From positions 62,001 through 126,000 of the forward strand of contig NBIV01000236.1 of the NCBI GenBank assembly GCA_003194525.1: a DNA stretch of 64,000 nt. The letters run 5' to 3'. This document shows positions 29,963 through 55,217 of the stretch, piece after piece (position 1 is the first letter of the stretch; each line of letters opens with the position of its first letter). The notes below the pieces were generated by a model that was given only the letters and a program-made list of their open reading frames with translations, did no database searches and had not been told where the DNA came from. Source of the DNA: Gracilariopsis chorda. Taxonomy: Eukaryota > Rhodophyta > Florideophyceae > Gracilariales > Gracilariaceae. Both the position numbers and the translations under genes were made by a program.

Positions 29963-31026
29963 TGTCGGTCGCTAATGTTGCGGAATGTGCCAGACATTGC
30001 TGGAACACACGTGTAGAATGTTCCAGTATTGTCTAGCACATTGCACGCTTTGTTGGTCCAGCAAAGACTACAGTATTTTAGTGATGCTGGCGCAAATTGT
30101 CGCTTTATTATTGGTTATTGTGCAGCTCCAGAGGTCTCTAGAAGCCAATGGAGTAACCTAGACGGACACATGAGTAACTAGCAAGTAGAAATGCGTATTT
30201 GGCTCGTTTGTAGTGCCTCTAAACACTATAAAAAGAGGTTCTGAGCTTCGGACTTCGGTCTGAACTCACCTCAACAATCGACCAACATCTAAGCCCCACC
30301 CCCTACCAACCTTCAGCCACTTCAACTATCATCAACAACCATTGAGGCGTTCGCCACTGGATAAAGGGCTTCTATTGAGGCTTGTGCCGCTAGTTGTCCA
30401 ATAGGGTGGGGAAGTACCGTCGCTAAGACCGGTTGAAGCGCCTTAGGCGTGGACGGGAGACGGGTAGTGTGTACCAAAGGTGTTTCTGTCGTCTGTGAGC
30501 CCCACCGGAGCTTTGCTCGGATAACGGTGTCGGTCGAAAGACCTGGTGATTTCCGGACGGAAGTACTTGACGGGAAGCTATCCGCAGGCGACGTGCCGTG
30601 GAACCTTTCCTGCAAAGGGCCAGCTTGGGTATAGAGTGAAAGAATTTCCCGCTGTTAGTAGCTCTCCTCTGGAAGCCCTGTAAGGATTGTATGCGTCTGC
30701 TTCTGGTTAGTGCAGAGGTATGTAGGCTGCAGCATCCACTTCACATCCGGAGTGTCTGACCGGAAGCCGAGGGTCTGACCCTTCGTGATCCTTGACATAA
30801 TTCTTGGGTTGCGCGCCGTTTCAACAAGAAGTTAAAAAGTTTTATTTGGGGATTGAGCCTCTTGCTCTCCCTAGTGTTGTTTTTTTTTTCATCGAGTGGG
30901 TTTAGTTCTTTTGATATCACTGTTTTCAACTTGTTTTGGGGCTTTTAGCTACGAAGAGCACCCTTTTGGCTTTTATTATTACAACTTTTTGGCCCCCTGC
31001 GTCACCGTCTCGTGATGGCGCCCACA
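29963..31026 (+). repeat. 5' LTR of family A copy 2
   Basis: Starts TGTCGGTCGC and ends GGCGCCCACA. The gag ATG at 31015 is inside it. The antisense frame seen in the other LTRs persists but has lost its ATG. Confidence 0.95.
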
Positions 31027-32786
31027 TGGTACTCTCGAGGAGGGAGCTCTTCTGACTCTAACGCTGCATTTACTTCTTATGACGGTTCTTCTATTGACGT
31101 CGTAAGTTTCTTCTTTTACTTTGAGAATGTTGGGATGAGAGGAAAGACTGACGAGGACATGGCACTTGAGTTGCTTGGTTTCCTTGAGAACAAAGCCTTT
31201 GAGTTCTACTATGATTCTTATGCTGTTAATGGTTCACTTTCGGAAGAAGCAAAGGACTACCGCTCCGTTAAGCAAGCTTTCATCGATCGTTTTGGAAAAG
31301 CCGAGGAGCCTGAGGAAGATATACGCCTTGCAATTTCTGCTAAATTGGATTATGCAGACTTGGTTGGTTCCTTGACCTATATGGACAACCTCTTCTTAAA
31401 GGCAGGATTCAACGCTAAGGCTAAGTTTGGTCTTTTGAAGAAAGCTGTAATGGAATACGCTGATCTAGCCCAGTTCGTTGTTTTCCGTGGCGCTGATGAT
31501 TATGATGAGTTGAAGGTTCAAGTGAAAGCCTTCGATGCTGCCCGGAAAGCAATGGGGAACTACGTTTCATTAAATACCCCACCTAAGCGTATTGTCCAAA
31601 ACCACAGGTCTTCTGAAGAAACTATCTCTCATGGTTTGGAGTCTAAGGTCGACAAACTCTCTGAGCAGTTTGCTCAGCTGTCATTAATGGTTAAGAAGAC
31701 ACAGACGGAGCGTCGAGACTACGAAAAGGTTTGTTCATATTGCAAGAAGCCCGGACATTATGCCTCACAATGTGACTCTAATCCGCACCGAGATACGCGA
31801 TGCCCGCGTTGTGGGAAAATTGGACACTCAGAGATCACTTGTTGGCGAAGAATCCGACCCGAAGAGACCCGCAAAGTATGGGATGCCAATGAGGAATCTA
31901 AAGAGTCAGCATCTAATCTTCAGAAAGGATCCGACCCCGTATCAATTGTCACCGAAAACGCCGGGAATGCTGATGTAGTCGCCACAACCAAGAGAAGTGC
32001 TGACGGTGAAGCGTTGCCCAAACAGCGCCGTTCAGACGGTGGTGCACCCATCTCTCTTTTGCTCAATCCAACAAGATACGAAGAGAGAGTTCGGAGACCT
32101 AAGGTTCATGAACAGAAAGTCAAGAAGCCGAAACAGAGGAAGTCGAAGAAGCAGAGTCTTCAAGACCATGCAAGCAAATATAACGTTCTCACTGAGCTCG
32201 TGAATGCCTCTTGCGGACTAACATTTGGACAACTTATCAGAGGAGACGCAGATGATGCGAAGAAAGAGATTCGTAAGCTCATCGGTCGCAAAAGCAATGT
32301 TCGACGCCCTTTTGTTGGGCCAGTCGGTAAGCAGCCTAGACGTCTTAAGGCGGTCCCCGTTATGATATATGGGACTGAGACTGAAGCTTTGCTCGACTCT
32401 GGAGCTGTTCCAAACCTTATGTCAACCAAGCTGTGTGACAGGCTAGCACTGGAACCCAAGCATACGACGAAGAAGATAACTGTTGCCAATGGACAGAGCG
32501 CCGTGTGCAGAGGAATACTATACGATATCCCTATATCCTTCAGGGGCGTCTCCGTTCCATTAGACTTTCTTTTTATTGATGGTCCGCCATTCGACATCAT
32601 TGTGGGTTGTCCAACACTTGAATCGTTACAAGCCTGCCTTGACCTCGGAAATCAGCACGTGAAGATGAATATTGATGGAAAAAGAGTAACACTTGGCTTT
32701 GACTATGCTCGCGTCGAGATTTCAGACGAAGAGGGTTTCCAGACGGATAGCGACGACTTCACTTCAGATTCTGACGCCGCTATTGA
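31015..32786 (+). pseudogene. gag and protease part of family A copy 2 (5' half of the split gag-pol)
   Basis: Open from the ATG at 31015 through gag, two CCHC knuckles (CSYCKKPGHYASQC, CPRCGKIGHSEITC) and protease (LLDSGA) up to the insertion point. The frame is cut at a run of Asp/Ser codons between protease and reverse transcriptase by the family B LTR. Protein sequence is almost the same as copy 1. The continuation is at 43025. Confidence 0.95.
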
Positions 32787-33594
32787 TGTGGTGCAATGCC
32801 CCAAAGGGGAAAAACACCGAAAGAAGTCCGGGATTTTCCTCTCACGAGGTGAACCCAGTTGGGTAGAGCCCTCCCAGAGGTGTCACGGCGAAGCCGGTTT
32901 GTAAGACCAGGGACACCTGTCGCGACTCGCGCAGGGAGGTGAAGGCGAAGAATCGGTATCCGCGTGAGCGGGGTGTGATCCTCAGTAGAAGTATGTTTCC
33001 ACGTAAGTGGGGGTGTGTGAGCGGATGCGCACACGAGGGCCGCGGATAGCGGGGGGTGCTACCCTAAAAAGGGGAAAGAGGAAGGGCGAAGTGGGTCGCG
33101 AGAGCGACGAGTAGATACGGCAATGCCGGTGGACAGGACTCCCTATACAGGGCGAAACACCAATATGATTGGAACAATTAGTACTCCCAATGATGGGTCT
33201 CCTTTAGATGTGCAAGGGGGGTGAACTTCCGTACACTACGGTGCTTCCCTCTAAGGAGGAGTTGAGAACACGCGGAGGCGGTAAAGCTCAGAGCCAATTC
33301 CCCAGGTTGGGGTCCCTTGTTGGGGAAGGTTTACTGGTGCGACGGCAGTGCGCCGTCGCACTAAGTACTAGCTTCCCAGAAATGGGTGTGAAAATAATAA
33401 ATAAAATTAACTAAAATACTCCACATTCCGTGGCAACATCCACTACTGTGGCCAACCGCCAATTCACCCAAAACCGTGTCCCACGTGTCCATATCCACCA
33501 TAGAGGGGCGTAGTTCATATACACACTACACAACCGATAATATCGGGAAAACGATCAAGTACCAAGAATCCCTCCCTGAGGGCGTTGCACTTCA
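32787..33594 (-). repeat. 3' LTR of family B
   Basis: 808 bases, TGTGGTGCAATG...TTGCACTTCA on the plus strand. It contains many CCNN-loop-NNGG palindromes, for example 32799-32809, 32838-32849, 32870-32880 and 32960-32971. Confidence 0.98.
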
Positions 33595-33606
33595 TATCCC
33601 CCCCTA
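33595..33606 (-). promoter_or_regulatory. polypurine tract of family B
   Basis: On the minus strand, AGGGGGGATA lies directly before the 3' LTR, as expected for the plus-strand primer of reverse transcription. Confidence 0.7.
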
Positions 33607-33649
33607 AGACGGGAAAACGACCGCGGACGCGGAGGATTCCCAGACGAAA

Positions 33650-34357
33650 ATGGGTGATAAAAGCGCGTGCGCCGTCTCCGGTTCTCCGGCAAAATCCCTC
33701 TGCACCAGAGTCAATACCTCCTGCTACTGCAGCTGTCATTTCCTCGCCTCGCCTTCGCGCTTCCTCGTCACCGAGCGTACTCCGACAAACAACATCCACC
33801 ACCACAGCCAACCTCCGAGGTCTCTCTGGCGATATACCACCGGTTTCCGGTCGGTTCCCCTGCCTCAGGGCGATCAACCTCCGGTACAACCGGGAAATAC
33901 GGCTGCTGAAGCCGACCATCCCTTCGCATTACCACCTTCGGTGGGATCCTCCGAGGAGGCGCGCGAGCTTCGCGATACGCCCCGGCATGTGCCGGAAGAC
34001 CACCCGGTGGGGTACGTCGATTCCGACGACTACTACCGCGCATACGGCGGGGATGACCCAATGGTCGATAACGAACCGGAAGAACCCGGGGAGATGGACG
34101 TAGAGGAAACCGGCGCTAGCGCGGAAGCTTTCCCAGAGGGGGCATCTCCGGCCGAGCCGGCTGCTGACCCTTCGGCGGCAAGTGCCGGACCTTCAATCCC
34201 CAGCGGGGTGACGGCAAATGAAAACGAAATCATCGCACGTTTCCTCCGGGGTGCCGGTCTTAGCGCTGCCGAGGTATCGGGGGATGTCACAACCATGGCG
34301 GACGCGTTGGCCTACCTCCTCGCTGGTGGTTACGCCCCGGACGATGGGGGTGAGTGA
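33650..34357 (+). CDS. antisense open frame between pol and the 3' LTR of family B
   Basis: 235 codons on the strand opposite gag-pol, with an ATG in good context (AAAATGG). The first third is basic and Ser/Pro/Cys-rich. The rest is acidic (DSDDYYRAYGGDDP, then EEPGEMDVEE) with a helical C-terminus (EIIARFLRGAGLSAAEVSGD). A second frame on the same strand (33585-34103) is also protein-like in its first half but lacks an ATG, so the true reading may shift. Antisense ORFs in this location are known from some large plant Ty3/gypsy elements; their function there is unclear. I recognise no domain. The sequence is hairpin-rich like the rest of the element. Confidence 0.4.
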   Translation: MGDKSACAVSGSPAKSLCTRVNTSCYCSCHFLASPSRFLVTERTPTNNIHHHSQPPRSLWRYTTGFRSVPLPQGDQPPVQPGNTAAEADHPFALPPSVGSSEEARELRDTPRHVPEDHPVGYVDSDDYYRAYGGDDPMVDNEPEEPGEMDVEETGASAEAFPEGASPAEPAADPSAASAGPSIPSGVTANENEIIARFLRGAGLSAAEVSGDVTTMADALAYLLAGGYAPDDGGE

Positions 34358-34548
34358 AACCTCTGGTCCAGTTTCCTGGTTCTTCTTTCCCTGGCTATGC
34401 CAGTTAGTGTAGTGTAGTATTGTGGGGAGCTAGCTGCTCCCCTGAATAAACTTTCCCGTTTAGAACGGTGCTTCTCGGTTGAGTTCCCCGTCTTCGACGG
34501 ACATTGCCTTGTTATCCTTTCCTTTCGCTCTCCGCTCGCGCGGCAACG

Positions 34549-37500
34549 TTACCCAACTTGGGCATTAACCAGCGTGGCTGGGGCTGCAGTTCCCGTTTGA
34601 CGGTGGTATCGCAGAACCTGCGACCGTGGGAGGTGTTCAATTGGCTCCCACGTATCCCCACTGGGGTCGTACCCGTACCAGCGGACGCGGTATTGTAGAA
34701 TACCATCCTGGTTCCAGGTGTATCCGACAAGTCGGTCTACTACGAACTCTCGTTCGTAGACCTGCCGGCCGTGCCGGGTGGTGGTTGTACTCCCTTGCGA
34801 GGGCTGCCCGCTGTGCGGTATAATGTCCCTTAGCAGGGTGTTCGGCGATAACTCCGACGTTGCCGTGCGCTGTTCTAGTGGCCGCTGCTCATGCGGGAAA
34901 ATATCCCTCAAGAGGGTGTGTGGTGTCACGGTTTTCCCCGGCAAGTCATTCCCCATTGGGGTGTCGTTGTTCCCGTCTTCACGGTAGGCCGGGCGAACCG
35001 CCAGTCGGCGGGGGACTTGGGCTCCGCTTTCGCGGTTGAGCTCACGAACCGCGAGTTTGCGGGAAGATGACCGCTCCTGCGGGATCGTCATTTCCACAAT
35101 CCCCTGGGGGGTCCCGTGCGACACGGTGATTGGGTGGCAAACCGCCTCCCTGCCAGGCGCACGAGCGCTCTGCACCATACGTTCCGGCGACGCCGTGGTG
35201 TCCACGGCTACTGACGGGTTGCCTGGGGCTAACTCCGGTACACCGGTATTTTGGTCAAAATTCCCCTTTGGGGGGTTCTGGGCAGGTGCCGATGACACCC
35301 TTTTCAGGGGAATTGCCGCTGAGCGCAGTGCACCATCTCCGTGAGGAGGAGCAGCGTCCGGTACGACCGGTTTCGAGCGTGCGATGGCGCGCGTTATTCC
35401 CGAGTTTCTCGGTTCTTCGCCGCAGCGATGCGGGGGTTGGCGCAAATTATTCCCCGTAGCGGGGGCTTTGATTCCGTCAACGACGGGAGGCGTTTCCGGT
35501 GCTTGCAAGCCAGGGCTTAAAGCTTCGACTGCAGCTTGGCCGCCTTTTTCCCCAAGAGGGGTGTGGGTATTCCCCTGTGAGGCCGGCGTATCTGGGCGCC
35601 CCTTCTCCGCAGGGCGCGGGTCTGATCGACCTGATTGAACCGCTTCCGCGGGGACTTCCGCCAACTGCGGCTTCGAGGCATCGGGCGATTGCCTTTCCGC
35701 TGCTGCGGTATTGGAGTGAGGCTTCTCGTTTTCCCGTGACAAACGGTGTATTTGCCGCTTTTGCGGGGCCTGCGCGTCTGGTTCCTGTTGCACAGCACTG
35801 CCCGGGAACGGGGAATTAGTGTCGCGTGACATACTCCGTGCTCCACGGTCAGTGTTCCGTATGTTACGGTGTGTTTCCCGTTGCGACGGTGATATCGTTC
35901 CTCGAAAACGAGTGTTCTCCTCCCCCTCCTTAGACGGAGCGGCGGGATAAGGGATAACATTCCCCGCCTGGCGGGTATAAATGCGCGCCAGTGGGGCAGA
36001 TGTGGTAGGGGCGGGCGCTGAGGGGCCCGAATTACCCGGCTGAGCCGGTGAGTCCGACAGAGTCGGTAGGTCTGAGAGACCCCGGCTGGGGTGTGGTAGT
36101 ACCGTAGGTCTAGTACTCCCGGATTGTTCCGGTGTAGCGGAGTCCGTAGAAACGGGGTTGCCTGGACCCAGGACTACCTCTGACGAGGGAGGAGGGGCAA
36201 GGACAACACGATCACGGGAAATCCGTTCGTGCGTGTCCCCCATCTCTACCACGACAGTGTCGGTGTTAACAGAGATCACCTTGAAGGGTCCATCCGCCAC
36301 AGGCGAGAGTTTGTGACGCTTCTCCCGTTCCGGGTTGTAGTATTCCTTCCTGATGAAGGCGTAGTTATTTGCCCGAATCGGGGACGGTTTTCCTCGCAAG
36401 CGAGCGTCAAAATCCCGCTTGTAAGCGGCTTGGGCCCGTGCCATAGACTTCCGCGCCGCGGGGACCAGCTTGGAAAGCCATTGCTTCCATTGCTGCCGGT
36501 AGATACCCACAGATGGGAAATTGTCCAAGGTAGCTTGGGGTTCCAGCGCCACAGGCGGGGGTGTTCTAGATAGAACTAACTCGAATGGCGAAACTCCGGT
36601 AGTCCGGTGTACCTGCGTATTGTACGCGTAGGTTACCGCATCAGCGTAGAGATCCCAATTCGTTGGGTGGTCAGCGACGTAGGAACGTAACGCCGCGAGT
36701 AACGTCCGGTTAAACCGTTCAACTTGCCCATTACACTGGGGGTGGTAGGTAGTCGTGAACAAGTTCTTGACATCCAGGATGCGACAAACATCCTGGAAGA
36801 ACTTGCTCACGAACTGCTTCCCGTTGTCAGAGAGCACCTCTACAGGGGGACCGTAGACAAAAATCCAGTGCGTCACCAGAGCCTGGGCCACCGTGAGAGC
36901 GGTTATCCTCCGAAGAGGGACAGTCCGTACCAGCTTAGAAAAGCGGTCGGTAATGACAAGTAGAAACTTGTTTCCACGTTTCGTGGTGAGTAATGGTCCG
37001 AGAATATCGATCGCAATAAACTCGAGCGGCGCCCTTGCGGGGAATAGTTTCATCTTCTTCGCATTTTTGCGGAGTTTGACGCGATTCTTCGCGCATTCGC
37101 TACAAAACCGCACAGTTGCGTAGCAATCCACCGCCATTGCGGGCCAATAGAAATCCCTTCGCAGGGTTAGGTAGAGTTTCCTCCCACCTGGGTGACCTCC
37201 AATGGGGGCGTAGTGTGATAGATGTAACACCCGCGATTGCAGGGAATGTGGTACCACAATCTGTGGGCGGGCTTCGACCTTTCTTACGAGGTAGCCTTTG
37301 TCGTTTACCCCGAAAGGAAGATCTTCACCACCGTTGATACGGGCACGAATTCTCGTACAGAATGGGTCGCCGAATTGTTCTCGGATCATTTCTTCCGGTG
37401 ATACCGGTACAAAGTTTCCCGGTAACGGGTTCTCAGATTTATCTCGCGATGCGAGTAGTTCGTCAAAATCAGCATCCTCGTCCCAGGTTTCTGGCGTAGC

Positions 37501-40110
37501 CTCGACGGCATGTTCCGGATCATCCGGGTCTATAGCCATGAAGCATGGGACTTCATCATCCTCCGTTGGGAGTGCTTCCCCACTTGTGGGTAACCGCGAT
37601 AAAACGTCGGCCTGAGTGTTCTGCGCGCCCTTTTTATAAATGAATTGAAAGTCATATTCCGCGAGGCGGAGTCTCCAGCGCATGAGGCGTCCCGACGGGT
37701 CGGAGATATTCATCAACCACCTCAATGAGGAATGATCCGTGTACACGGTAAAGTGAATTCCCATAAGGTAGGGGCGCAGAGTGGTCATCGCCCATACGAC
37801 GGCGAGGCACTCTTTCTCCGATACGGAGTAGTTCCGCTCATGAACATTGAGCGAACGTGATCAATAACCAATTGGATGCCGTTCCCCCTCGGGGGTGGTT
37901 TGAAAAGGAGCACACCCGACTTGGTAGTCGCTCGAGTCCGTATCTACGGAGTATGGCAACCCAAGTTTTGGGAGATGTAGGATTGGTGCTGATGTGACAG
38001 CCTCCTTTAAGGAGTTGAAGGCTTCCGATTGCTCGGGCGTAAATATTCCCAGTTTTGGGGGGTTCCCCTTTCGCAACAACGCGTTCAGGGGCGCTGCAGT
38101 ATCCGAAAAGTTCGGGATAAACCGTCGATAGAAGTTGACCAGCCCCAGAAAGGAGCGCAGTTCCGTTTGAGTACGGGGTTCCTTCGCCTCAACGAGGGAT
38201 TTGACTCGAGCTTTCTCGATCGCTAACCGTCCAGGACGGATAATGTGACCCAGATACTTCACAGTATCTGTGAAAAACTCGCATTTCCTCAACTTGAGGG
38301 TAATTCCCGCATCGCGGAGTACGGTGAGCACGTCTCGGACGTGAGTGAGATGGTCGTCCAACGAGTTGGAGAAGATGATGATATCATCAAGGTAGACCAG
38401 ACAACTCCGCCACTTAAAGCGGTTGAGTAGAATATCCACTGCACGCTGAAAGGTGGCGGGGGCGTTGGTTAACCCAAATGGCATCCGCTTGAAGCGGTAC
38501 GTTCCTGCATGGCAGGTGAATGCGGTTTTGTCGCGATCCTCCTGTCTGACAGGTACTTGCCAATATCCCCAATTGGCATCAAGGGCCGTGAACACGGTGG
38601 CGTCTCCAAGGGAGTCAATGCACTCGTCCATACGAGGGATGGGGTACGTGTCCCTAACAGTCACGGCATTGAGCCGGCGGTAGTCGACACAGAACCTCCA
38701 GGTTCCGTCGGCCTTTAAAGCCAGTACAACTGGGGATGCCCAGGGTGATTGAGCGGGCTCAATCACACCTGCGCGGAGCATCTTGTCCACCTGGGACTGC
38801 TCCTCTTCCCGAGCTTTCGGACTTGCCCTGTAAGGGGGTTGTGCAACCGGTCGCGCACCGGGGATTAAATCGATCCGGTGTTCCGTTGCATTAATCTCGC
38901 CAAGCGAGCCATCCCACATTGTGGTGAATTCCCGTAACATAGTACGGAGTTTGTCGCGGTGCGACTCTGGCACGTGGCTGAAGTCCAGCGCTTCAAGTGC
39001 TTTTTCCGGATCAATCCGGTCATTGCTCGATGGAGCATTGTCCTGTGGAACAGGTGTGGTTTGCAATTCCGAGTTACTCGGTATGTTCGGCGCTGAAGTA
39101 GCGGTTTCCTCCCCCTCCTTAGACTTGACGTCTTCGGACGGCGGGGCGAACTCCTCAGAAGAGGTGGTAACTCCGAGTACATCGGCGGCTGTCATCTTTG
39201 TTGGCAGCATTCCCATAGGATGGGGGGTTACACTCCCAATTACTTGGTGTTTGACCAGATACTGGGGGTGTTTGCCAAGGTTGGCAACCAATATCCGGAA
39301 AGGGACATCCGGGGAAATGGAGACAATTCCATTAGCCAGCGCCAGCTGGGATTTCTCGTACAACGAGGCGAGGGGTTGTATAACCCGAAGACCGTGTTGA
39401 CGGGAATTTACCTGCACCCAGACTTGGGACTCAGCCGGTATAGAAACCGAGGCAGCGACGCGGAGCTTGGTGGACTCGCGGGACGCGGGCGGTGGTTCCT
39501 GCGCAGCAGGGAGCGGAACTTGTCTCCGAGAGGACCGCTTTAGCGGGCGGCGAACAATCGGAACCGACGATCCGTCGTCAAGTTCTACACGCCTGAGGCG
39601 GGGCCTGATTGCGTCGACAAATCTGTCGCAGTAATCACATCCCAGTATGACTGGTGCTGCCAATGAATGGCAAACGATGAAGTCCAACTTCACCACGGAG
39701 GTACCAAGTCTCACGACGAGGTCCACTGTGCCCACCGTTTGTAACGGGTTGTTATTCGCATCCGAAATGTCGGGGACCGCGTCAGAGCGGATACGAGACC
39801 GCACAAGCGGGGGTAACAATGATTCCACAACGAAGTTGGGGCCTGCACCTGTATCCAGGACGGTGAGAAACCTCACCATAAACTGGGGGTCAAGGCCAAG
39901 GTCGGCATAGACCTTATAATTGCGCTTGGCCAAGACCAAGACTCTACCGGGAATCCGGGGATTTTTACTCCGTATCCACGGGCGACGCAACACACCGAGG
40001 TGCGCAGAGTCCGCGTCAGCGGTGTCTTTCCTCGAGAGGACTTTCACCGGGGAGCGAGGCGAGGACGCCTCGGGCGCCAACAGCCTCGTTCTTGAGGACG
40101 CCTCTCCCAA
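34549..40110 (-). pseudogene. pol polyprotein of family B (PR-RT-RH-IN-chromodomain), one in-frame TGA
   Basis: One frame of about 1850 codons, interrupted only by TGA at 37861-37863 within RNase H (HPIGY-stop-SRSLNVHERNYS), where relatives have Trp. Protease shows VLDTGAGPN. Reverse transcriptase shows FCVDYRRLNAV and YLDDIIIFSNS. RNase H continues with YTDHSSLRWLM and ADVLSRLP. Integrase has the HHCC zinc domain (HLSHYAPIGGHPGG, then CSECAKNR) and the core residues (IAIDILGP, LSDNGKQF, GQVERFNRT). A long Pro/Ser/Gly-rich linker of about 450 residues follows, then a chromodomain near the C-terminus (EFVVDRLVGYTWNQDG, then LQYRVRWYGYDPSGDTWEP). The frame stays open upstream of 40110 and overlaps the end of gag in the -1 phase. 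No ATG is near its start, so it is probably expressed by frameshift or re-initiation. Confidence 0.9.
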
Positions 40111-40127
40111 AGGGGAGACTCCCTCAG

Positions 40128-42111
40128 TTAGTTTTCCGCCTTCGGCGGTGGGTTGGTTTCCTCGACAACGAGTGCTTCATCCCGTTGACGGGGGTTTCTA
40201 TCCGCATAAGCGGGGGTTGCAACGGATGGTTGCGTGATCTCCCGAATCGGGGTGTATGAAGCTTGCCGCGCACGCGGGGTCTGTGGTAGGGCGTGGGAAA
40301 AGTCCGTTTTAGCACGGAGGTAGGAAGCCGTCGGGACGGAACGTTTCTCCTCTGGAGTGAGGGCCTCATAATTTGCCACCACCTTGGCCATATCCTTCAG
40401 TGAACAAATACACTGAGGAGAGGTATGGCCATGGGCATAGCACAGGTGGCAAATGAGAGCCAGCACCGCGACACGCGGATTATTATTCCGAGTATCGGAG
40501 AAGCGAACCGCAGGGCGGGTGTCAGTCCATCCAGGCCGTTGATAACGGGATTGACCGTTTGAAAACGGGAGTCGTTGGGGTTGAACCCGACTGTTACCAC
40601 CGTATAGAACGGGATCTTCTGTTCCCGTATCATGGGTCATCTCCGTCGTTGACGGTAACTCACTGGTGGGTATCGACACACCATCCCCCTGCGCTAAATG
40701 CACGGTATCAAATCCCTGTCCAGGGTTCCCATCCGCGGTGAGCGGGAGAGAGGAAGCTTCGCTTTCCAGCAACAACGCCTTGGCGGATTTAGACCGATTG
40801 TTCGGAGTTCTTGCACGAAGTGCATCCCCTTCCGCTCGAGCGTGTTGGACCAGCTCGAGGTAGGTGATCCTTCGCTTCTCCTCCCGATAACGGGTAACTA
40901 AACTCCGGATTGCCGGGTCAAGACCATCAATGAACATGGTACTGCGCTCCCCAGCGGGGTATACGTTACCACATCTGTGGAAAGCCTTGTTAAGGCGCAC
41001 CGAGTAATCGGTCTCGGTCTCTCCAGCACGCTGGCGTGTATCTCGCAACGCGAGGATAGCCTGCTGAATAGCGGTGTTGGTGGCGTAGGAGCGCAGAAGA
41101 TACTGCACAGCCTCCGGCCAGCAAGTAACTCCTCCCTCGGAAGCGCGAGAAGATCCTCTGACAGAGGTGTATTGGTCCTCCGCCACTCCCCGTAAGAAAT
41201 ACGGTAAAGCCAAATAGGCTTGTCCCTCATTCATACCGAGGATATCGGCCTCCGCTACAAAGCGGGATAGGAAATCCAGTACTAGGACTGGGTCCTCTCC
41301 AGTAAAATACTGGTTGCGGAGCGAGAGCTGCATTCGCTTAATGCATTCTCGCACCTTTCCCGTACCACGGGGCGGAGTCCGAGGAGCTCGAGCTAACCGA
41401 ATGGTTTCGGGATGAGTCCGAAGATGTCGAAGAATCGGAGTCCGAATATTTTCGGTGGTGTTTCCGTCGGTGACGGCGTTTCTTCTTCCCAGCAAGCTGG
41501 TCGTTGTGCGATGCCTCGTTTACCGGATCACCCGGGGATGGTTTGTCCATGAGGACGAACTGCTCCAGCGTCTCCAGGCGGGCACCAATCCGATCAAATC
41601 GGGCTTCAACTCCTTCGATGAAGGCGGCGGGTTGTCCCAAACTCTCCAACACGGAGTTGACGTCAGACCGTAAAATACGGAGTTCCTCGGCGACGTCCTT
41701 TACGGGGGTTGCCGAGACCACCTCTTGGAGGGATTTTAGTTCCCCTACAAGGGTGTCATGGGCGGTCCACAGAGCGCGGACCTGGGATTCCAGGGAAGTC
41801 CCCTGGGGGGTGTTATCGCCCGTTCCACGGGGGCTTGAAGCCGCGACAGCGGGAGCAGGCCGGGGTGCCTGGGGCACTGCGGCAACAGCCGGAGTCGATG
41901 CTGCATTCCCCTGCGGGGGTGATAACGAGGGCAAAAGGAGGTTCCGGGGTTCCCGGTCGGGGGTATCATTCCGCGATGAAGCGGCGCCAGCACGGCTGGA
42001 ACTTGTCCGTATAGGGATACGGGGTACGAACCGAACTTCGGAAGTGTCCGCGTTGTCGCGGGAGCGACTACGCGTAACCACTGGCTCCGCGTCGGAGGGA
42101 TTTCTCGACAT
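40128..42111 (-). pseudogene. gag of family B, in two overlapping frames
   Basis: The N-terminal frame (42111-41338) is Ala/Pro/Ser-rich with a coiled coil (LRILRSDVNSVLESLGQPAA) and a basic KKKRRHRRKHHRKYSDSD patch. The C-terminal frame (41495-40128) holds the capsid-like retrotransposon gag helices (FTGEDPVLVLDFLSRFVAEA; LRDTRQRAGETETDYSVRLN) and ends with one zinc-knuckle-like motif (CHLCYAHGHTSPQC). The two frames overlap at 41338-41495 and need a shift to be read as one protein. That shift is either an indel or a programmed event. The start ATG at 42111 is about 105 bases after the 5' LTR. Confidence 0.8.
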
Positions 42112-42195
42112 GAGAAAATACCGTTACGACGGGAAACGATCACGGAACTTCCGGTGAATGAAAACAAACCTCGTAAGAGGGAAAACAAAAACCGA

Positions 42196-42213
42196 TTCTA
42201 GGTCGGGAGACCA
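42196..42213 (-). promoter_or_regulatory. primer-binding site of family B
   Basis: Three bases inside the 5' LTR, the minus strand reads TGGTCTCCCGACCTAGAA. The plus strand of the same site reads like a tRNA 3' end, with GGTCGGGAGACCA, so the primer should be a tRNA whose acceptor stem begins CTCCCGA. Confidence 0.65.
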
Positions 42214-42216
42214 CTT

Positions 42217-43024
42217 TGTGGTGCAATGCCCCAAAGGGGAAAAACACCAAAAGACGTCCGGGATCTTCCTCTCACGAGGTGAACCCAGTTGGGTAGAGCC
42301 CTCCCAGAGGTGTCACGGCGAAGCCGGTTTGTAAGACCAGGGACACCTGTCGCGACTCGCGGAGGGAGGTGAAGGCGAAGAATCGGTATCTGCGTGAGCG
42401 GGGTGTGATCCTCAGTAGAGGTATGTTTCCACGTAAGTGGGGGTGTGTGAGCGGATGCGCACACGAGGGCCGCGGATAGCGGGGGGTGCTACCCTAAAAA
42501 GGGGAAAGAGGAAGGGCGAAGTGGGTCGCGAGAGCGACGAGTAGATACGGCAATGCCGGTGGACAGGACTCCCTATACAGGGCGAAACACCAATATGATT
42601 GGAACAATTAGTACTCCCAATGATGGGTCTCCTTTAGATGTGCAAGGGGGGTGAACTTCCGTACACTACGGTGCTTCCCTCCAAGGAGGAGTTGAGAACA
42701 CGCGGAGGCGGTAAGGCTCAGAGCCAATTCCCCAGGTTGGGGTCCCTTGTTGGGGAAGGTTTACTGGTGCGACGGCAGTGCGCCGTCGCACTAAGTACTA
42801 GCTTCCCAGAAATGGGTGTGAAAATAATAAATAAAATTAACTAAAATACTCCACATTCCGTGGCAACATCCACTACTGTGGTCAACCGCCAATTCACCCA
42901 AAACCGTGTCCCACGTGTCCATATCCACCATAGTGGGGCGTAGTTCATATACACACTACACAACCGATAATATCGGGAAAACGATCAAGTACCAAGAATC
43001 CCTCCCTGAGGGCGTTGCACTTCA
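42217..43024 (-). repeat. 5' LTR of family B
   Basis: 808 bases, about ten differences from 32787-33594. At least three of the differences fall in palindrome stems, breaking a stem in one copy that is intact in the other. Confidence 0.98.
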
Positions 43025-43029
43025 ATTGA

Positions 43030-45838
43030 CTCTGATACTGCTTCTGAAAATGACGAACAACTCGTGGTTGCTCTAACAGAAAAGAACCATGGCGAGACTC
43101 CCGAAATGATCCCGCAATTGGACATCACTACCGATGAGCAGCACGAGAAGTTACTCTTTTCAAAACTCTCGCACATTTCAGAGGATGAAAGACACGACTT
43201 GGTTTCTTGTCTGAAGGACTCGAATGTAATCGCTTGGTCATTGAAAGACTTACGCCCAGCCGATGTGCCTGTTTCTCACTCTTTCGAGTTGACAGTTGAC
43301 AAACCAATCTACTTCAGAGCCAGGAGGATGTCGCCGAAGCACAACGAGTTCGTACGCAAGGAGATTGATCTTCTTCTCGAAGCTGGTATCATTACCCCTT
43401 CAGCCTCTGCTTGGTCGTTTCCAATTGTCATTGCCTCGAAGAAAGATGGAAGCGCAAGGTTTTGTGTCGGTTACAGAGAGCTGAACAGAGTCATGAAAGC
43501 TGACCGCTGGCCTTTGCCACGCATGGAAGAGATCTTTGACGAACTTGGAGGTTGCTGTGTCTTCACTACGCTCGACCTGTTCTCTGGATACTGGCAAGTC
43601 AAGATGTCTGAGGATTGCAAAGAGATGACGACCTTTGTGTGCAGATACGGAACTTTCATGTTCGAAGTCATGCTATTTGGTCTCATGAATGCCCCTTCCA
43701 CCTTTCAACGGATGATGGATCATGTGCTAAGAGGACTTCCATTCGTTCGGGTTTACATTGATGACGTTGTCATATTCTCAAGAAGCCTCAGAGAGCACGT
43801 GATTCACTTGAAGGCTGTGATTGGTCGGATTGCGAAGCATGGATTGAAGCTCAAACTGTCCAAATGTTTCTTTGCACTATCGGAGGTGTCTCTTCTAGGC
43901 CATGTCATCAACGGAGATGGAGTGCACGTGGACCAGGAGAAGATTGCTAAGATCCAGGATGCCCCAATTCCTGCCACCACTACGGAACTACGATCTTTCC
44001 TGGGACTAGCCGGATACTATCGAAGGTTCATCAGAAACTTTGCTGAGACCTCCGCCGTGCTTCACAGTGCTACCTCGGGGAATAAGAAGCTGAGTTGGAC
44101 CGGAGAGATGCTAGAAGCTTTCCACGGTCTGAAGAAAAAGATGACTGAGCCTCCGGTACTTTCATTTCCAAACTTCGAGCAGCCTTTCATTGTGGAAACG
44201 GACGCCTCTAGTGTTTCACTCGGCGCAGTTCTCTCTCAGAAAAAGGAAGATGGGAAGATACATCCTCTGCAGTTTGCCAGTCGTACTATGACCGCTGCGG
44301 AAAAGAACTACTCGGCATGTGAAAGAGAAGCATTGGCAGTTATCTTTGCTCTCAAGAAGTTCAGATTGTATCTACTCTCGTCTGTTCCATTCAAGGTAAT
44401 CACGGACCATATGGCTTTACGATATGCATTTCAGAAGCGCGATATACATGGACGCTTAGCTCGCTGGCTAGACTTTCTGGCCGAGTATGACTTTGAAATA
44501 GTGTATCGCGCAGGCAAGGAGAATGGCGCAGCAGATTATCTGTCAAGGATAGTTCACGGAGACGAGGTCGAGCCGTTAAAAGATGAAGGCGACCTTGCTT
44601 GTATGGCTGTTGAGCCTGACGACTTCTCCGGTCTTGAACCATACTACGCAAACATTGCGCGCTTCTTGTGTGGTCTGCCTACAGATGAGACTGATGCACG
44701 TCTCCGCCAAGCAATCCCACGAAATGCGAAGAAATTCCTGGTCTGGGAAGGAAAATTGTTCAGAAGGATGCCAAACGCACTGCGAGTTGTTCCTGTTATT
44801 GGTCGGCGACAGATCATTTTCAAGTCATTTCATGATGAGATTGGACACTGGGATTTGAAGACTACAAGGAAGTTCATCACTGAGAGATACTGGTGGCCCA
44901 CTATGCATGAAGATATCGGCAACTACGTCAAGAGTTGTGACGAATGCCAGAGACTCGCACCACTACCAAGGTATTACAGCAACCTTCGGACTCCCATTTC
45001 CTCTCTCTTTGACGTCTTGTCGATTGATTTTGCAGGTCCTCTTCCGACTACCGAATCCGGAAACCGTTTCATTCTGGTTTGTGTTGAGCATTTGACTGGT
45101 TGGCCACTTGCGTAGCGAAAATGGTCTACGTCACAAGAGGTCATAGACTTCGTGAGAAAAGAGATCATTGCCGTGTTTGGTTTCCCTCGTATCGTGGTGT
45201 CGGACAATGCTACATGCTTCACTTCTAAGTCGCTCGTCTCATTCATGGAGGACCATGGTATCAAATGGAAAACGGTCTTGGCGTACGCCCCCATGTCCAA
45301 TGGCCGAGCTGAAAGGATGGTTGGTACTCTGAAAAGAGCAATAGGAAAGAAAGCTCTGGATAATCGTTCAAGTTGGGACGAACACCTGCCTTCGGTTCTG
45401 TACGGATACCGGCGCAGACATCTTGCCAGTGGGATCTCTCCGTTCGAGTTGCTTTACGGCGTGAAACCACGTATGACCTCCGATGAAGGTGGTGCCGTGG
45501 CACGAGTTGGGTACTTCTCCGACCGGTTCCGCTCAGTGGAGCTGCTCGCATCAAGGAATCATAGAGCTAAACGTTCTGCTCTGAGGCCTTTGAAGGAAGT
45601 CGATGCAGTCTCCATTACGAAGTTTGAAGTCGGTGATCTGGTCCTTGTGGCTCGTGGAAAGGCCCTGAACACTACCGTGAAATGGCCTGCTTTTTCCTCT
45701 AAGTACTTTGGCCCATGTCGTGTGGTGAGGGCTCACCATCCAAGGTACACGTTGGTTTCTCCACACAACCGGTACACTCGCCATGGAATACACGCCCGTC
45801 GTTTGAAGAAGTATATTGCGCGCCCGATGGAAGGTTAG
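43030..45838 (+). pseudogene. reverse transcriptase to integrase part of family A copy 2 (3' half)
   Basis: Resumes the copy 2 gag-pol frame. Reverse transcriptase has YIDDVVIFS, but FCVDYRELN has become FCVGYRELN and VMPFGL has become VMLFGL. RNase H and integrase zinc domain are present. Near 45112 two small deletions (1 and 2 bases relative to copy 1) keep the frame but create a TAG (WPLA-stop). The rest of integrase (VSDNATCF, GRAERMVGTL) is open to 45838. Copy 2 is therefore disabled by this stop, by the nested insertion and by missense changes. Confidence 0.95.
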
Positions 45839-45882: not shown

Positions 45883-46945
45883 TGTCGGTCGCTAATGTTG
45901 CGGAATGTGCCAGACATTGCTGGAACACACGTGTAGAATGTTCCAGTATTGTCTAGCACATTGCACGCTTTGTTGGCCCAGCAAAGACTACAGTATTTTA
46001 GTGATGCTGGCGCAAATTGTCGCTTTATTATTGGTTATTGTGCAGCTCCAGAGGTCTCTAGAGGCCAATGGAGTAACCTAGACGCACACATGAGTAACTA
46101 GCAAGTAGAAATGCGTATTTGGCTCGTTCGTAGTGCCTCTAAACACTATAGAAAGAGGTTCTGAGCTTCGGACTTCGGTCTGAACTCACCTCAACAATCG
46201 ACCAACATCTAAGCCCCACCCCCTATCAACCTTCAGCCACTTCAACTATCATCACCAACCAGTGAGGCGTTCGCCGCTGGATAAATGGCTTCTAGTGAGG
46301 CGTGTGCCGCTAGTTGTCCAATAGGGTGGGGAAGTACCGTCGCTAAGACCGGTTGAAGCGCCTTAGGCGTGGACGGGAGACGGGTAGTGTGTACCAAAGG
46401 TGTTTCTGTCGTCTGTGAGCCACACCGGAGTTTTGCTCGGATAACGGTGTCAGTCGAAAGAACTGGTGATTTCCGGACGGAAGTACTTGACGGGAAGCTA
46501 TCCGCAGGCGACGTGCCGTGCAACCTTTCCTGCAAAGGGCCAGCTTGGGTATAGAGTGAAAGCATATCCCGCTGTTAGTAGCTCTCCTCGGGAAGCCCTG
46601 TAAGGATTGTATGCGCCTGCTTCTGGTTAGTGCAGAGGTAGGTAGGCTGCAGAATCCACTTCACATCCGGATTGTCTGACCGGAAGCCGAGGGTCTGACC
46701 CTTAGTGATCCTTGACATAATTCTTGGGTTGCGCGCCGTTTCAACAAAGAAGTTAAGAAGTTTTATTTGGGGATTGAGCCTCTTGCTCTCCCTAGTGTTG
46801 TTTTATTTCATCGAGTGGGTTTAGTTCTTTTGATCCCACTGTTTTCAACTTGTTTTGGGGCTTTTAGCTACGAAGAGCACCCTTTTGGCTTTTATTATTA
46901 CAACTTTTTGGCCCCCTGCGTCACCGTCTCGTGATGGCGCCCACA
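45883..46945 (+). repeat. 3' LTR of family A copy 2
   Basis: 1063 bases. It ends GGCGCCCACA and is followed by TGGTC (46946-46950), the reverse complement of the GACCA next to copy 1. The antisense 107-codon frame (46242-46565) is intact. Confidence 0.95.
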
Positions 46946-47122
46946 TGGTCCATTGTCCACGATTTTGGGGTCGCTCTTTGAGCGACCCCACGGAAGAGAC
47001 ACTTCGGAATCTTTCTACCAGATTTGTTTTTAAAATTTCGCTCATTAAACATGAATTATTTTTAATTCTTTTCCCGGCGCAGTGCCAAAAACCCATGTCC
47101 ATGTCCATATGTAGAAAGGGCC
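46946..47122. mobile_element. larger part of the 214-base MITE, with a perfect internal hairpin
   Basis: The right terminal repeat is 47096-47122, followed by TAA (47123-47125). The other end is at 19515-19551 after the inversion. Inside is a perfect palindrome, GGGGTCGCTC-TTT-GAGCGACCCC (46967-46989). No coding capacity. Confidence 0.75.
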
Positions 47123-47380
47123 TAAGTGTCCGGCCAGACACTGATGCGAGCGTGTCCAGCGATACTTGTAGACATAGTGAGCTCCCACAATGACAACGAG
47201 CTGTCCGCACGTACTGCTCAAAGAGGAGCGGCCAATGAGGCGGCGCGTTATGCCATTACGGAGCATCGCACACAACTTGAGAGAGGTGACGTTAGTTAAC
47301 TTTGACAGATAATAACGCCCCAGCCATTGTCATCGCCATTGCCGCCGCGCCCCTCCACGCCAACCCACCCTCACCGCACC

Positions 47381-49207
47381 ATGCACCGCTCTCCGCCGCC
47401 TCCTCCCTCCACCGCGCCGTCAACCAGCACCGGCAGCAAGCCCAACGACTCCGCGCAAAGCGCCCACCATCATCAAGCCCACCACATCGAAGAGTTCGGC
47501 CAAGTGCACAATGTGCAACATCGCGACGCCGATTCGCAGCATAGCGATGCTGCCCCGCCGCCATTGCGCTCCCGCGACGCGCTCACCCGCAGAAACCTTG
47601 GCAGAAAGGTGTTGGCTGCTCTCTTCGAACGCAGGCATCTCCAACAGTACTACGCGTCCGAAGTGCTGTACCGCACCGCGCAGAGAAGAACGGTGGCGCC
47701 GGATGAGTTGTTTCTGGACCTTGTGTTGGTCGGTGGAATCGCCGCATTGGGGCACGAACTGCGCGAGAACTTCCACTCCTGGAAGGACGTGGAGAAGTTT
47801 TTCTTGCTGTTTGCCGCAATCTACAGCAGCTGGCGCACCGTCATTCTGTTGTGGAACTTGTGGGGAATCAAGAAGGACCTGTTCGAAAAGCTTGTCATTT
47901 ACGCCGTGTTTACGTGCTTGATTGGCATTGCGTTGGGTGCACATGGCGCGTTTCAAGATGGCATTCGCCCGTACGTGGCCGTTTGTTCCTTCTTGGCTAC
48001 GGCGCTGCCGGCGTGTGTGCAGTTTTATTGGGGCAGTCGCGAACCACTGATGAAAAACAGCAACAACATTGTGAATCAGCTCACACTCATATCGGGCACC
48101 AGTATTGCCATCTCGCTACCGTATCTGGCGGCGGCGTTTGTGCGCTCGGAACGAGCGACGAGGATTTTGTATTGGATTCCACTGGGTTTGCAGTTTGTGG
48201 CCATCTTCTTCACGGGCAGTGTGTACCGCTTTCTACACCGCAATAGACCGGGGTCCACTCGGCTGGCTGTGGCCATTGAGCTCATGGTGGAGAAGTATGA
48301 GGTGTTGACGATGATCGTTTTGGGCGAGTCGGTGCTGGGCATTCTGTTCGAGGCGGGCAAGTTTTTAACCAAGGAAGGCGCTCAATTGGACAGATTGTAC
48401 GGCGTTGCGGCGGCATCAACGGCGATGTTGTACTGCTTGCAGACGCTTTATGTGAATGTGGACGGGTGTATCGTGAAGGGCGGGCAGCACGCAATTCGGT
48501 ACAAGGTGGTGTTTGGAATTGTGTGGAGCCAGCTGCACACGTTGTACCACATGGCGTTGATCCTGTTTGCAACGGGGCTGGGAATCTCGATTCACGACGT
48601 GATGCTGCCGTCTGAAAAGAGCGAGAGTGCGCGCTGGGCCGTTGTGGTTGTGATGAGGGCTGCGACGGGTGGCAAGGGGGCGGTGGCGCCTGGCTTCGGC
48701 GACAAGGAACGGTGGCTGTTCTCCGTGGGGTGGGGAATGTCGATGATAATGTCGGCGGCCATGGGGGTGCTGCACTACGGCGGGCCGCGGGCGGCGTCGC
48801 GTCGGTACAGGGTGGCCACCCGGGTGGTGGTTGCGACGGGCGTCATGGTGGGGCTGCCGTTCACGCGGCTGAGGGCGGACGTGTACCTGGGCGTGCACAC
48901 GGCGGTGGTGGTGTTGCTGACGGTGGCGGAGTTCATTCTGGCGCACATGGACCGGATGGGGTTCTTCCGCTCGGAGGGCAGCTCGAAGGCATCCAGCGGG
49001 TGGGGGGTGTCGTTTGACGACGGGGAGGGCGGGGAGTCGGCGGACGCGCCGAGCCGCCCGGAGGAGGTGCAGCTGCAGGGCGGCGGCGACATGCCGGAGG
49101 AGCTGTCGCTGGCGCTGCGGCGGCGCCTGTGCAGGGGCCACTGCAGCCGGCTGGTGGCGGTGCGGCGCGCCGTGAGCGGCGGTGACGGCGGTGACGCCGC
49201 CGTGTGA
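47381..49207 (+). CDS. LtrA-family multi-pass membrane protein
   Basis: 608 residues from the ATG at 47381 (MHRSPPPPPSTA), single exon. A disordered His/Gln/Pro-rich N-terminus of about 90 residues is followed by the LtrA (low temperature requirement A, PF06772-type) core. Its signature segments are LFLDLVLVGGIAALGHEL and EVLTMIVLGESVLGILFEAG, among about a dozen hydrophobic spans. The C-terminal 80 residues are Gly/Glu-rich and cytosolic-looking. LtrA proteins were first linked to cold growth in Listeria; biochemical function is unknown and transport or redox roles are unproven. It is followed on the same strand, 119 bases on, by a divergent paralogue, so the pair likely arose by tandem duplication. 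GC is very high in its 3' third. Confidence 0.85.
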   Translation: MHRSPPPPPSTAPSTSTGSKPNDSAQSAHHHQAHHIEEFGQVHNVQHRDADSQHSDAAPPPLRSRDALTRRNLGRKVLAALFERRHLQQYYASEVLYRTAQRRTVAPDELFLDLVLVGGIAALGHELRENFHSWKDVEKFFLLFAAIYSSWRTVILLWNLWGIKKDLFEKLVIYAVFTCLIGIALGAHGAFQDGIRPYVAVCSFLATALPACVQFYWGSREPLMKNSNNIVNQLTLISGTSIAISLPYLAAAFVRSERATRILYWIPLGLQFVAIFFTGSVYRFLHRNRPGSTRLAVAIELMVEKYEVLTMIVLGESVLGILFEAGKFLTKEGAQLDRLYGVAAASTAMLYCLQTLYVNVDGCIVKGGQHAIRYKVVFGIVWSQLHTLYHMALILFATGLGISIHDVMLPSEKSESARWAVVVVMRAATGGKGAVAPGFGDKERWLFSVGWGMSMIMSAAMGVLHYGGPRAASRRYRVATRVVVATGVMVGLPFTRLRADVYLGVHTAVVVLLTVAEFILAHMDRMGFFRSEGSSKASSGWGVSFDDGEGGESADAPSRPEEVQLQGGGDMPEELSLALRRRLCRGHCSRLVAVRRAVSGGDGGDAAV

Positions 49208-49326
49208 CGCCGCCGCGTGACGCCGCCGTGACGGTGCGCGCGTTGCGTTTCGCCTCGGCGCGTCATGTGGTGTGGATAAGTTAGGTCAACGGTACCCTTC
49301 GTAGATGAAGCTAACTTTAGTGGCGG

Positions 49327-51202: not shown

Positions 51203-51410
51203 TACAGTATATCACCCCCTCCACAGCTAGTAACACTCTTAACTCGGAGAGCAACGCGCTGTGATACTTTTTAAGTTAACCGCACACTTTTCCACGTCTT
51301 ATTGTCAAGCCTGTTGTATTGTTCACATCTATTAAAAAATCATCTGTTGACTTACATCCTTCGTACAAAACTTGAAACTGTTCCACGAGTGCTAAAGGCG
51401 AGACGGCAAG

Positions 51411-51683: not shown

Positions 51684-55018
<3,335 letters not shown>

Positions 55019-55217
55019 TAAATGGCTTTGATAAGCTATGAGTCAAGCATGACGACAGACGCTCGACAATCAACAGTCCCTCGCAGTTGTCTTTAGTACC
55101 GTTTTGTGGACCAAAGTTGCTTCACCCGTGGTCCCCATGATATCATGCATGTGAATGAAATAATACCTGAACAGACCATGAGTACACCATTTCGTCAATC
55201 ATCGCGAATTAACATGT

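What the first reader, a model, noticed from the sequence alone, without database searches (positions are those of the whole stretch)
32787..43024. A complete retrotransposon built from closely spaced mini-palindromes
Family B carries interrupted palindromes CCNN-(2 to 6 bases)-NNGG throughout its LTRs, gag, pol, linker and antisense frame. Examples: 32799-32809, 32838-32849, 32960-32971, 38227-38239; and four in a row at 41236-41248, 41252-41265, 41276-41291 and 41299-41313. Larger ones occur (CCAGGATG / CATCCTGG at 36774-36796). Spacing is about 16-35 bases wherever I walked it, in conserved RT and integrase codons as well as in non-coding LTR. Family A and host genes nearby show nothing like it. 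Because each stem reads CC...GG on both strands, RNA from either strand would fold into a chain of small hairpins. Possible causes: a selected RNA structure (packaging, nuclease or silencing evasion), protein-recognition sites, or a copying process that turns near-palindromes into perfect ones.
Basis: seen in the sequence. Interest (0 to 1): 0.93.

Follow-up and report, generated by a model that had tools for sequence, protein, structure and literature searches.

The report
Seaweed retrotransposon made of tiny hairpins
A jumping gene in what appears to be a red seaweed carries hundreds of miniature hairpins of nearly one size along its whole length, apparently kept by natural selection even inside its protein-coding parts, for a purpose not yet known.

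Summary
Element B (32787-43024) is a Ty3/gypsy chromodomain retrotransposon, apparently of a red alga. It holds 267 CCNN-N(2-7)-NNGG palindromes against 32.4 in dinucleotide shuffles (z 35). Family A, the outer element and the rest of the window are at expectation. In one pol frame, 69 sites are seen where synonymous-codon permutation gives 10.6. The units are mini-hairpins: 4-5 bp stem, 3-4 nt loop, mostly closed by C-G. Neighbours prefer a 20-25 nt pitch, in LTR, gag and pol alike. Subfamilies B2 and B3 carry them too. So does one relative from another assembly (L061), without the CC/GG preference. Four-fold sites in stems change less (9/123 vs 114/559), and diverged copies have different stems at the same places. 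So the hairpins look selected; tests within young copies are mixed. I found no sign of a copying process that makes palindromes. G-U pairs are no commoner than random mismatches, so I favour hairpins read in single-stranded DNA, or on both strands, over sense-RNA structure. Stage and function remain inferred.

The parts
32787..43024 (-). Element B, Ty3/gypsy chromodomain LTR retrotransposon with both LTRs, nested in an older Ty3 element; the hairpin array covers all of it
42217..43024 (-). 5' LTR (808 bp, TG..CA); hairpin-dense
32787..33594 (-). 3' LTR (808 bp); 10 of 808 positions differ from the 5' LTR
32782..32786 (.). target-site duplication ATTGA, left copy
43025..43029 (.). target-site duplication ATTGA, right copy
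42200..42213 (-). putative primer binding site (TGGTCTCCCGACCT) 3 nt after the 5' LTR; a hairpin CCAC-AAA-GTGG spans the LTR/internal junction
   Evidence: assigned by position, tRNA not tested
33595..33605 (-). putative polypurine tract AGGGGGGGATA before the 3' LTR
   Evidence: by position
41338..42111 (-). gag frame, N-terminal part
   Evidence: no Pfam hit; assigned by position
40128..41495 (-). gag frame, C-terminal part with a CCHC-type motif (motif recognised from memory)
   Evidence: no Pfam hit
37861..40110 (-). pol frame: N-terminal region, reverse transcriptase (RVT_1 at about 38239-38715) and start of RNase H
34549..37788 (-). pol frame continued: RNase H, integrase (rve at about 36739-37032), chromodomain
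34621..34746 (-). chromodomain (PF00385)
41236..41313 (.). example of four consecutive hairpins in gag
36774..36796 (.). longer hairpin, 8 bp stem CCAGGATG/CATCCTGG with 7 nt loop; atypical of the array
33650..34357 (+). open frame antisense to the element, no Pfam family at E 0.01; unproven as a gene

Best explanation
Element B and its close relatives carry an element-wide array of miniature hairpins maintained by natural selection. Each unit is a perfect Watson-Crick stem of 4-5 bp with a 3-4 nt loop. In the B lineage it is mostly closed by 5'-CC/GG-3' and flanked by unpaired bases, and neighbouring units prefer a centre distance of 20-25 nt (on average one unit per 40 nt). Most likely the hairpins act when the element is single-stranded DNA (first-strand cDNA and displaced or second-strand DNA), or otherwise on both strands. 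They would form a string of compact beads that lets the cDNA be compacted, coated by the element's own Gag/nucleocapsid or protected, without long duplex. Shown here: the array, its geometry, the lack of G-U tolerance, constraint on stems in coding sequence, and replacement by different stems at the same place. Inferred: the single-stranded-DNA stage, the reader protein and the benefit.
For: Density and controls. Geometry: (5,3) 71 vs 8.0, (4,4) 96 vs 23.0, (4,3) 57 vs 23.6; loop 0 not enriched (33 vs 39.5); after loop 3 and 5 bp only 9% of 79 extend. Stem bases free but complementary: pairs 3 and 4 WC in 0.65 and 0.59 of 179 CC-N8-GG, loop positions at chance. Constraint: stems unchanged between B and B2 86.3% of 95 vs 73.6 +- 4.1% at slid positions; B to B3 13.0% of 92 vs 3.2 +- 1.9%; in the roughly 75%-identical B/B2 segment 10 of 21 vs 13.4 +- 8.1%. 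Four-fold sites in stems 9/123 changed vs 114/559 (p 4e-4); B3 to B 25/60 vs 289/411 (p 3e-5). Same place, different stem: 15 of 80 changed-stem sites have a B3 hairpin centre within 2 nt vs 4.4 +- 1.7 slid. Both strands/DNA: 13 G-T/T-G seen vs 13.3 expected as an even share of the 88 mismatches beside 423 WC pairs; one-sided changes B to B3 G-T 31 vs A-C 35; pair probability with DNA parameters 0.61/0.60 (sense/antisense) vs 0.48-0.54 with shuffled flanks, RNA 0.39/0.37 with no clear gain from real flanks. Pitch: centre distances 20-25 nt 61 vs 32 (z 5.6), 30-35 nt 15 vs 31 (z -3.4), 40-45 nt 40 vs 30 (z 2.2). Relatives.
Against: On the sense strand linkers are A-rich (internal 0.34 A vs 0.24 T; LTR 0.35 A against 0.20 in the rest of the LTR) and the base after GG is A in 96 of 195 sites, which points to sense RNA; yet linkers just behind the 5' LTR are T-rich (0.44 T, 48 nt). 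With DNA parameters the CC..GG sites elsewhere in the window form as well as B's (0.595 vs 0.61), so the DNA result rests on the flank-shuffle control alone, with two shuffles per strand. Young-copy tests of selection are mixed: shared variants avoid stems in one set (p 0.03) but not in the other (pooled p 0.29), and fixed B/B2 differences against private variants are not significant (38 of 343 vs 50 of 409 in stems, p 0.65; with B2 roles p 0.15). With loop 4 there is no stop to stem extension (0.30, then 0.23). The pitch is clear only in B; B3 leans the same way and L061 does not. There are no data on ssDNA, Gag binding or fitness. The CC/GG closure is not explained by folding energy alone.
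Confidence: 0.42

Rival explanations
1. Sense-RNA structure: the genomic RNA folds into a bead chain bound by Gag for packaging, or it hides the RNA from silencing or dsRNA sensors, as proposed for genome-scale ordered RNA structure.
For: Linkers A-rich and flank +1 A on the sense strand, also in the non-coding LTR; windowed folding z -1.38 sense vs -1.22 antisense, LTR -2.12 vs -1.24; gag frames of B and L061 have a CCHC-type motif (recognised from memory).
Against: No G-U tolerance in B, B2, B3 or L061; with RNA parameters mean pair probability is 0.39, below the 21 sites elsewhere in the window (0.53), and real flanks do not clearly help; GG..CC hairpins hardly enriched.
Confidence: 0.26
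2. Both RNA strands matter: local self-structure on sense and antisense transcripts, and on small RNAs cut from them, slows sense-antisense pairing and guide use, so the element escapes RNA silencing.
For: WC-only pairing is what a two-strand constraint predicts; 36% of 21-nt and 46% of 24-nt windows contain a whole hairpin vs 10% and 13% in shuffles and 8% and 10% in family A; stems mostly stay at 4-5 bp.
Against: No transcript or small-RNA data available here; RNA-parameter pair probability is low on both strands; strand-asymmetric linkers.
Confidence: 0.16
3. A copying process (fold-back template switching during reverse transcription, anchored by CC and GG) turns near-palindromes into perfect ones; no selection on the hairpin.
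For: Would explain WC-only stems, minimal loops, CC/GG ends, no clear codon phase and spread into LTRs.
Against: Gains 1 vs losses 51 among 331 private variants, about as random change gives; stems conserved more than matched positions and at four-fold sites; changed pairs mostly one-sided: B/B2 segment 20 one-sided, 6 WC doubles, 4 other doubles (reverse direction 12, 3, 6); B to B3 158, 23, 28; loop inversion in 1 of 21 changed loops.
Confidence: 0.1
4. Base composition or codon effect.
For: The element is GC-rich (0.56 overall).
Against: Dinucleotide and synonymous-codon permutations; a window stretch of 0.635 GC (48001-50000) is at expectation, 6 vs 7.3.
Confidence: 0.01

Closest known systems
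Chromodomain Ty3/gypsy retrotransposons (chromoviruses)
   Same: LTRs TG..CA, 5-bp target duplication, RT-RNaseH-integrase order, C-terminal chromodomain, at least 40 copies at 99%
   Different: Of the 19 loci found in bacterial and archaeal assemblies with the pol query only L061 has a comparable array (loop-3+4 hairpins z 10.8; the 18 others between -1.9 and 3.0); the two other Ty3-type elements of this window have none
[quoted passage not shown] other papers seen only in the listing)
   Same: Structure pervades the genome including coding sequence; proposed to evade innate sensing
   Different: Here a near-fixed unit (4-5 bp stem, 3-4 nt loop, preferred closing pair and pitch), no G-U, alike on both strands, in a DNA-integrating element, apparently of a red alga
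Bacteriophage N4 virion RNA polymerase promoters (PMC4496689, passages read)
   Same: Small hairpins formed in DNA; stems with conserved and variable bases, the identity of the variable bases described as extraneous
   Different: Three promoters in a phage, not an array over a whole element; no such polymerase found in the element's scanned frames; a 7 bp stem in the passage seen

Membership tests
Ty3/gypsy chromodomain retrotransposon | RT, RNase H, integrase in Ty3 order | tested here: met
   Pfam RVT_1, RT_RNaseH, Integrase_H2C2, rve in that order on the minus strand
Ty3/gypsy chromodomain retrotransposon | C-terminal chromodomain | tested here: met
   PF00385, 36.6 bits vs cutoff 25.1
Ty3/gypsy chromodomain retrotransposon | LTRs and target-site duplication; PBS and PPT | tested here: met
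   808-bp LTRs TG..CA and ATTGA duplication; PBS-like and PPT-like sequences by position only
Genome-scale ordered RNA structure | Folding energy of the genome below that of shuffles | tested here: met
   Mean window z -1.38 sense, -1.22 antisense (142 windows each, 12 shuffles per window); family A, outer element and a host stretch near 0
Genome-scale ordered RNA structure | Structure of the genomic RNA strand, with G-U tolerated (criterion from general knowledge) | tested here: not met
   G-T as rare as other mismatches; both strands alike
Genome-scale ordered RNA structure | Effect on host sensing or persistence | not testable with these tools
   needs experiments
N4-type DNA hairpin promoters | Hairpin recognised by a polymerase encoded by the element | tested here: not met
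   No RNA polymerase family among Pfam hits at E 0.01 in the six frames scanned

The most novel reading that the evidence does not exclude
A mobile element lineage, apparently of red algae, writes a second, structural code through its whole sequence. It is an array of strictly Watson-Crick DNA mini-hairpins with a preferred pitch of about 21 nt, selected unit by unit and re-formed with new stems at the same places, that organises the single-stranded DNA stage of retrotransposition (or acts on both strands).
Probability: 0.33. Interest if true: 0.95.

Novelty: categorically new. Interest (0 to 1): 0.9.

Why it matters
Nucleic-acid structure spread over a whole genome is known from RNA viruses as a statistical tendency. 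Here it is a discrete unit with nearly fixed geometry, repeated 237 times over 9.4 kb and kept through coding, non-coding and LTR sequence. The strict pairing rule gives a rare handle to ask which molecule (RNA, cDNA, both strands) the selection sees. If the DNA reading holds, it would be the first case known to me of selected structure in retrotransposon cDNA, and it would bear on how such DNA is packed or shielded. None of the papers listed by my ten literature searches shows such an array in its title or abstract start; several of those lists were cut to the best rows, and the library is open-access only.

Tried and rejected
Base composition and codon usage: rejected. Fixed protein-DNA motif as sole cause: rejected, since inner bases vary but stay complementary. 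Loop inversion at hairpins: 1 of 21 changed loops between B and B2 was a reverse complement, plus one single-base case among young copies. Copying process: see rivals. Rfam: no family at gathering threshold in 32700-43100. Viral contigs: two scans with protein alignments confirmed no relative. 137 genomes of the L061 family: only the L061 genome itself had matches. Plasmid records: 3 weak hits, not followed. L072 (39 vs 21.4 +- 4.1 hairpins in its longest frame; concentrated in 2100-3500) and L081 (38 vs 28.1 +- 5.0) are weak leads, not counted as support. Dropped rows: L007 left out of the young-copy counts as chimeric (560 differences); L050 not used. Loci L001-L030 and L031-L060 overlap in part (same contigs), so the 60 are not 60 different elements. 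In one search the B/B2 divergence proved to be concentrated in the last part of the fetched pol piece, so whole-piece averages mix segments. The 195 sites include 14 nested pairs. Further B-like groups in the genome (C705, C160, C28:49086, C15:237346 and others) were seen by protein match only; their DNA could not be fetched.
Full report
What it is. Element B (32787-43024, minus strand) is a Ty3/gypsy retrotransposon with 808-bp LTRs (10 of 808 positions differ), a 5-bp target duplication ATTGA, RT, RNase H, integrase and a C-terminal chromodomain. It sits inside an older Ty3-type element whose LTRs lie near 29963-31030 and 45883-46950. The best-scoring named relative of its pol protein is from the red alga Agarophyton chilense (66% in the search, 68% in alignment A1). 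A host gene for a gamma-tubulin complex protein is 95% identical to an unnamed protein and 82% to one of A. chilense, so the host is probably a gracilariacean red alga. The assembly has 91.3 Mb in 1081 contigs. Gracilariopsis chorda has a genome of about this size, but that is recalled, not tested.

The observation. All nine quoted palindromes are there. The CCNN-N(2-7)-NNGG count is 267 against 32.4 +- 6.6 in dinucleotide shuffles, while family A, the outer element and the other window parts are at expectation. Any-base 5-bp stems are mildly in excess in 46951-64000 too (z 3.4). Permuting synonymous codons, which keeps protein and codon usage, gives 10.6, 5.8, 2.9 and 2.4 where 69, 42, 27 and 19 are seen, without a clear codon phase. 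So the pattern is neither composition nor coding.

Anatomy. The enriched objects are CC-N(7-9)-GG, 11 to 13 nt long. Stem 5 with loop 3 is 71 vs 8.0, stem 4 with loop 4 is 96 vs 23.0, stem 4 with loop 3 is 57 vs 23.6. The outermost pair is strongly preferred to be C-G and the second is mostly C-G or G-C. The inner pairs are any Watson-Crick pair and the loop positions do not pair above chance. With loops 3-5 the end type CC..GG is 178 vs 12.4, CG 29 vs 11.1, CT 23 vs 4.5, GG..CC 21 vs 11.5. After loop 3 stems stop at five pairs (9% of 79 extend); after loop 4 there is no such stop (0.30, then 0.23). Loop 0 is not enriched (33 vs 39.5, 31 vs 35.9), so the sites are hairpins rather than duplex palindromes. 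In B, 237 non-overlapping hairpins (25 per kb; starts CC, CG or CT) are spread evenly, 9 to 17 per 500 nt including the LTR. Centre distances peak at 20-25 nt (61 vs 32) and again at 40-45 nt (40 vs 30), with a trough at 30-35 nt (15 vs 31). The 45 gaps of 20-36 nt hold weaker hairpins more often than shuffles at middle scores (0.78 vs 0.60, 0.51 vs 0.33) but not at the highest (0.18 vs 0.18). B3 leans the same way in spacing (20-25 nt 9 vs 5, 30-35 nt 0 vs 5) and L061 shows no clear pitch.

Relatives. In the host genome there are at least 40 copies at 99% (only 40 of 1017 candidates were scored), a subfamily B2 at 92% and a distant subfamily B3 (63% in alignment). All 60 loci fetched there (partly overlapping) are dense in sites: 16-21 per kb for the B and B2 loci, 12.3-12.7 in B3. 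A relative in a contig of a Robiginitomaculum assembly (L061, best segment 49% identical; presumably algal contamination) also has the hairpins: loop 3 or 4 z 10.8, synonymous permutation 53 vs 22.6 in gag and 31 vs 13.4 in pol. It shows no preference for the CC/GG closure. Of the 19 loci found in that search the 18 others have z between -1.9 and 3.0. The highest, L072, is a weak lead.

Selection. B and B2 share 82 sites out of 92 and 94. Stems are unchanged more often than at slid codon-matched positions: 86.3% vs 73.6 +- 4.1% for B to B2, and 13.0% vs 3.2 +- 1.9% for B to B3. Loops are not (77.9 vs 83.5%, 21.7 vs 19.6%). In the roughly 75%-identical B/B2 segment 10 of 21 stems are unchanged vs 13.4 +- 8.1%, and 10 of 19 vs 12.8 +- 6.8% the other way. 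Four-fold degenerate sites change in 9 of 123 stem positions vs 114 of 559 elsewhere (p 4e-4), B2 to B 11/124 vs 112/558, B to B3 48/88 vs 266/383, B3 to B 25/60 vs 289/411 (p 3e-5). Where stems have changed, a hairpin of different sequence often sits at the same place: 15 of 80 vs 4.4 +- 1.7 slid for B/B3 (for example CCTGTcagACAGG against CCCTcttAGGG), and 4 of 11 vs 0.6 +- 0.8 for the B/B2 segment. Most B sites have no B3 counterpart within 3 nt (64 of 92), so the array turns over while density is kept. Tests inside young copies are weaker. Shared variants avoid stems in one set (5 of 61 stem variants shared vs 69 of 344 others, p 0.03). In the second set they do not (B p 1.0, B2 p 0.05, B3 p 1.0, B and B2 pooled p 0.29), and fixed B/B2 differences compared with private variants show no significant stem deficit (p 0.65 and 0.15), although stems differ less than their loops (0.046 vs 0.094 per site).

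Mutation. Private variants in 29 young copies make 1 gain and 51 losses of sites in 331, close to random single changes (0.8% gains, 13.9% losses). In the B/B2 segment changed pairs are 20 one-sided, 6 Watson-Crick doubles and 4 other doubles; in the other direction 12, 3 and 6; from B to B3 158, 23 and 28. These do not suggest a copying process that makes or repairs palindromes.

Which molecule. G-U is the test. At inner pairs of B sites 423 are Watson-Crick and 88 mismatched. G-T plus T-G are 13 where an even share of mismatches predicts 13.3, and A-C plus C-A are 21 vs 15.7. B2 (7 vs 5.7), B3 (4 vs 8.0) and L061 (95 vs 80.8 with A-C 114 vs 93.7, any ends) agree. In evolution one-sided changes from B to B3 give G-T 31 and A-C 35, and from B3 to B 11 and 21. 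A fold needed only in sense RNA should tolerate G-U. With RNA parameters at 20 C the mean pair probability of the 181 sites is 0.39 (sense) and 0.37 (antisense), not clearly different from shuffled flanks (0.35-0.46). With DNA parameters it is 0.61 and 0.60, above shuffled flanks (0.48-0.54). The CC..GG sites elsewhere in the window reach 0.53-0.56 as RNA (21 sites) and 0.595 as DNA, so B's sites are not more stable than those as DNA; the point rests on the flank control. I read the whole as selection on single-stranded DNA or on both strands. Against it, linkers are A-rich on the sense strand, in the LTR too, though not just behind the 5' LTR, and sense RNA folds slightly more stably relative to shuffles than antisense.

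Mechanism. The best-supported reading is an array of tiny hairpins that acts as a whole, each adding a little. The array and the constraint on stems are shown; the stage, reader and benefit are inferred. Rivals are RNA packaging or evasion, and a two-RNA-strand shield against silencing.

Known kinds. The closest concept is genome-scale ordered RNA structure (abstract of PMC3950689), from which this differs by its unit, pitch, strict pairing and strand symmetry. The N4 hairpin promoters (passages of PMC4496689) show that small DNA hairpins with variable stem bases can be read as structure. The rows listed by ten searches of the held library (two returned none) describe no such array in title or abstract start. 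Only those listings were seen for papers other than the two named.

Noticed in passing
29963-31030 and 45883-46950, with frames 31012-32904 and 43064-45115 (+): The outer Ty3-type element into which B inserted: LTR pieces 97-98% alike, a gag-like frame with zinc-knuckle-like motifs (recognised from memory) upstream and an RT-like frame downstream; no hairpin excess.
   Followed up: partly
pol 3' part, alignment columns from about 4050 to the end of the fetched piece (L053 vs L039): B2 matches B at 96-100% in 13 of 19 blocks of 300 columns, 87% in one and 70-78% in the last five, which looks like recombination between subfamilies.
   Followed up: partly
L072:2100-3500: A Ty3-type locus in a Fibrobacteres assembly has a mild excess of loop-3 and loop-4 hairpins (39 vs 21.4 in its longest frame).
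   Followed up: partly
L061, G001:C116, C128, C354: Eukaryote-like Ty3 retroelements in contigs of an assembly labelled Robiginitomaculum, probably contamination.
   Followed up: partly
33650-34357 and 33585-34103 (+): Open frames antisense to the 3' part of the element without a Pfam match; conservation in other copies not tested.
   Followed up: no
47327-51202 (+): Adjacent frames (626, 378 and 262 aa) that look like membrane proteins by eye; not analysed.
   Followed up: no
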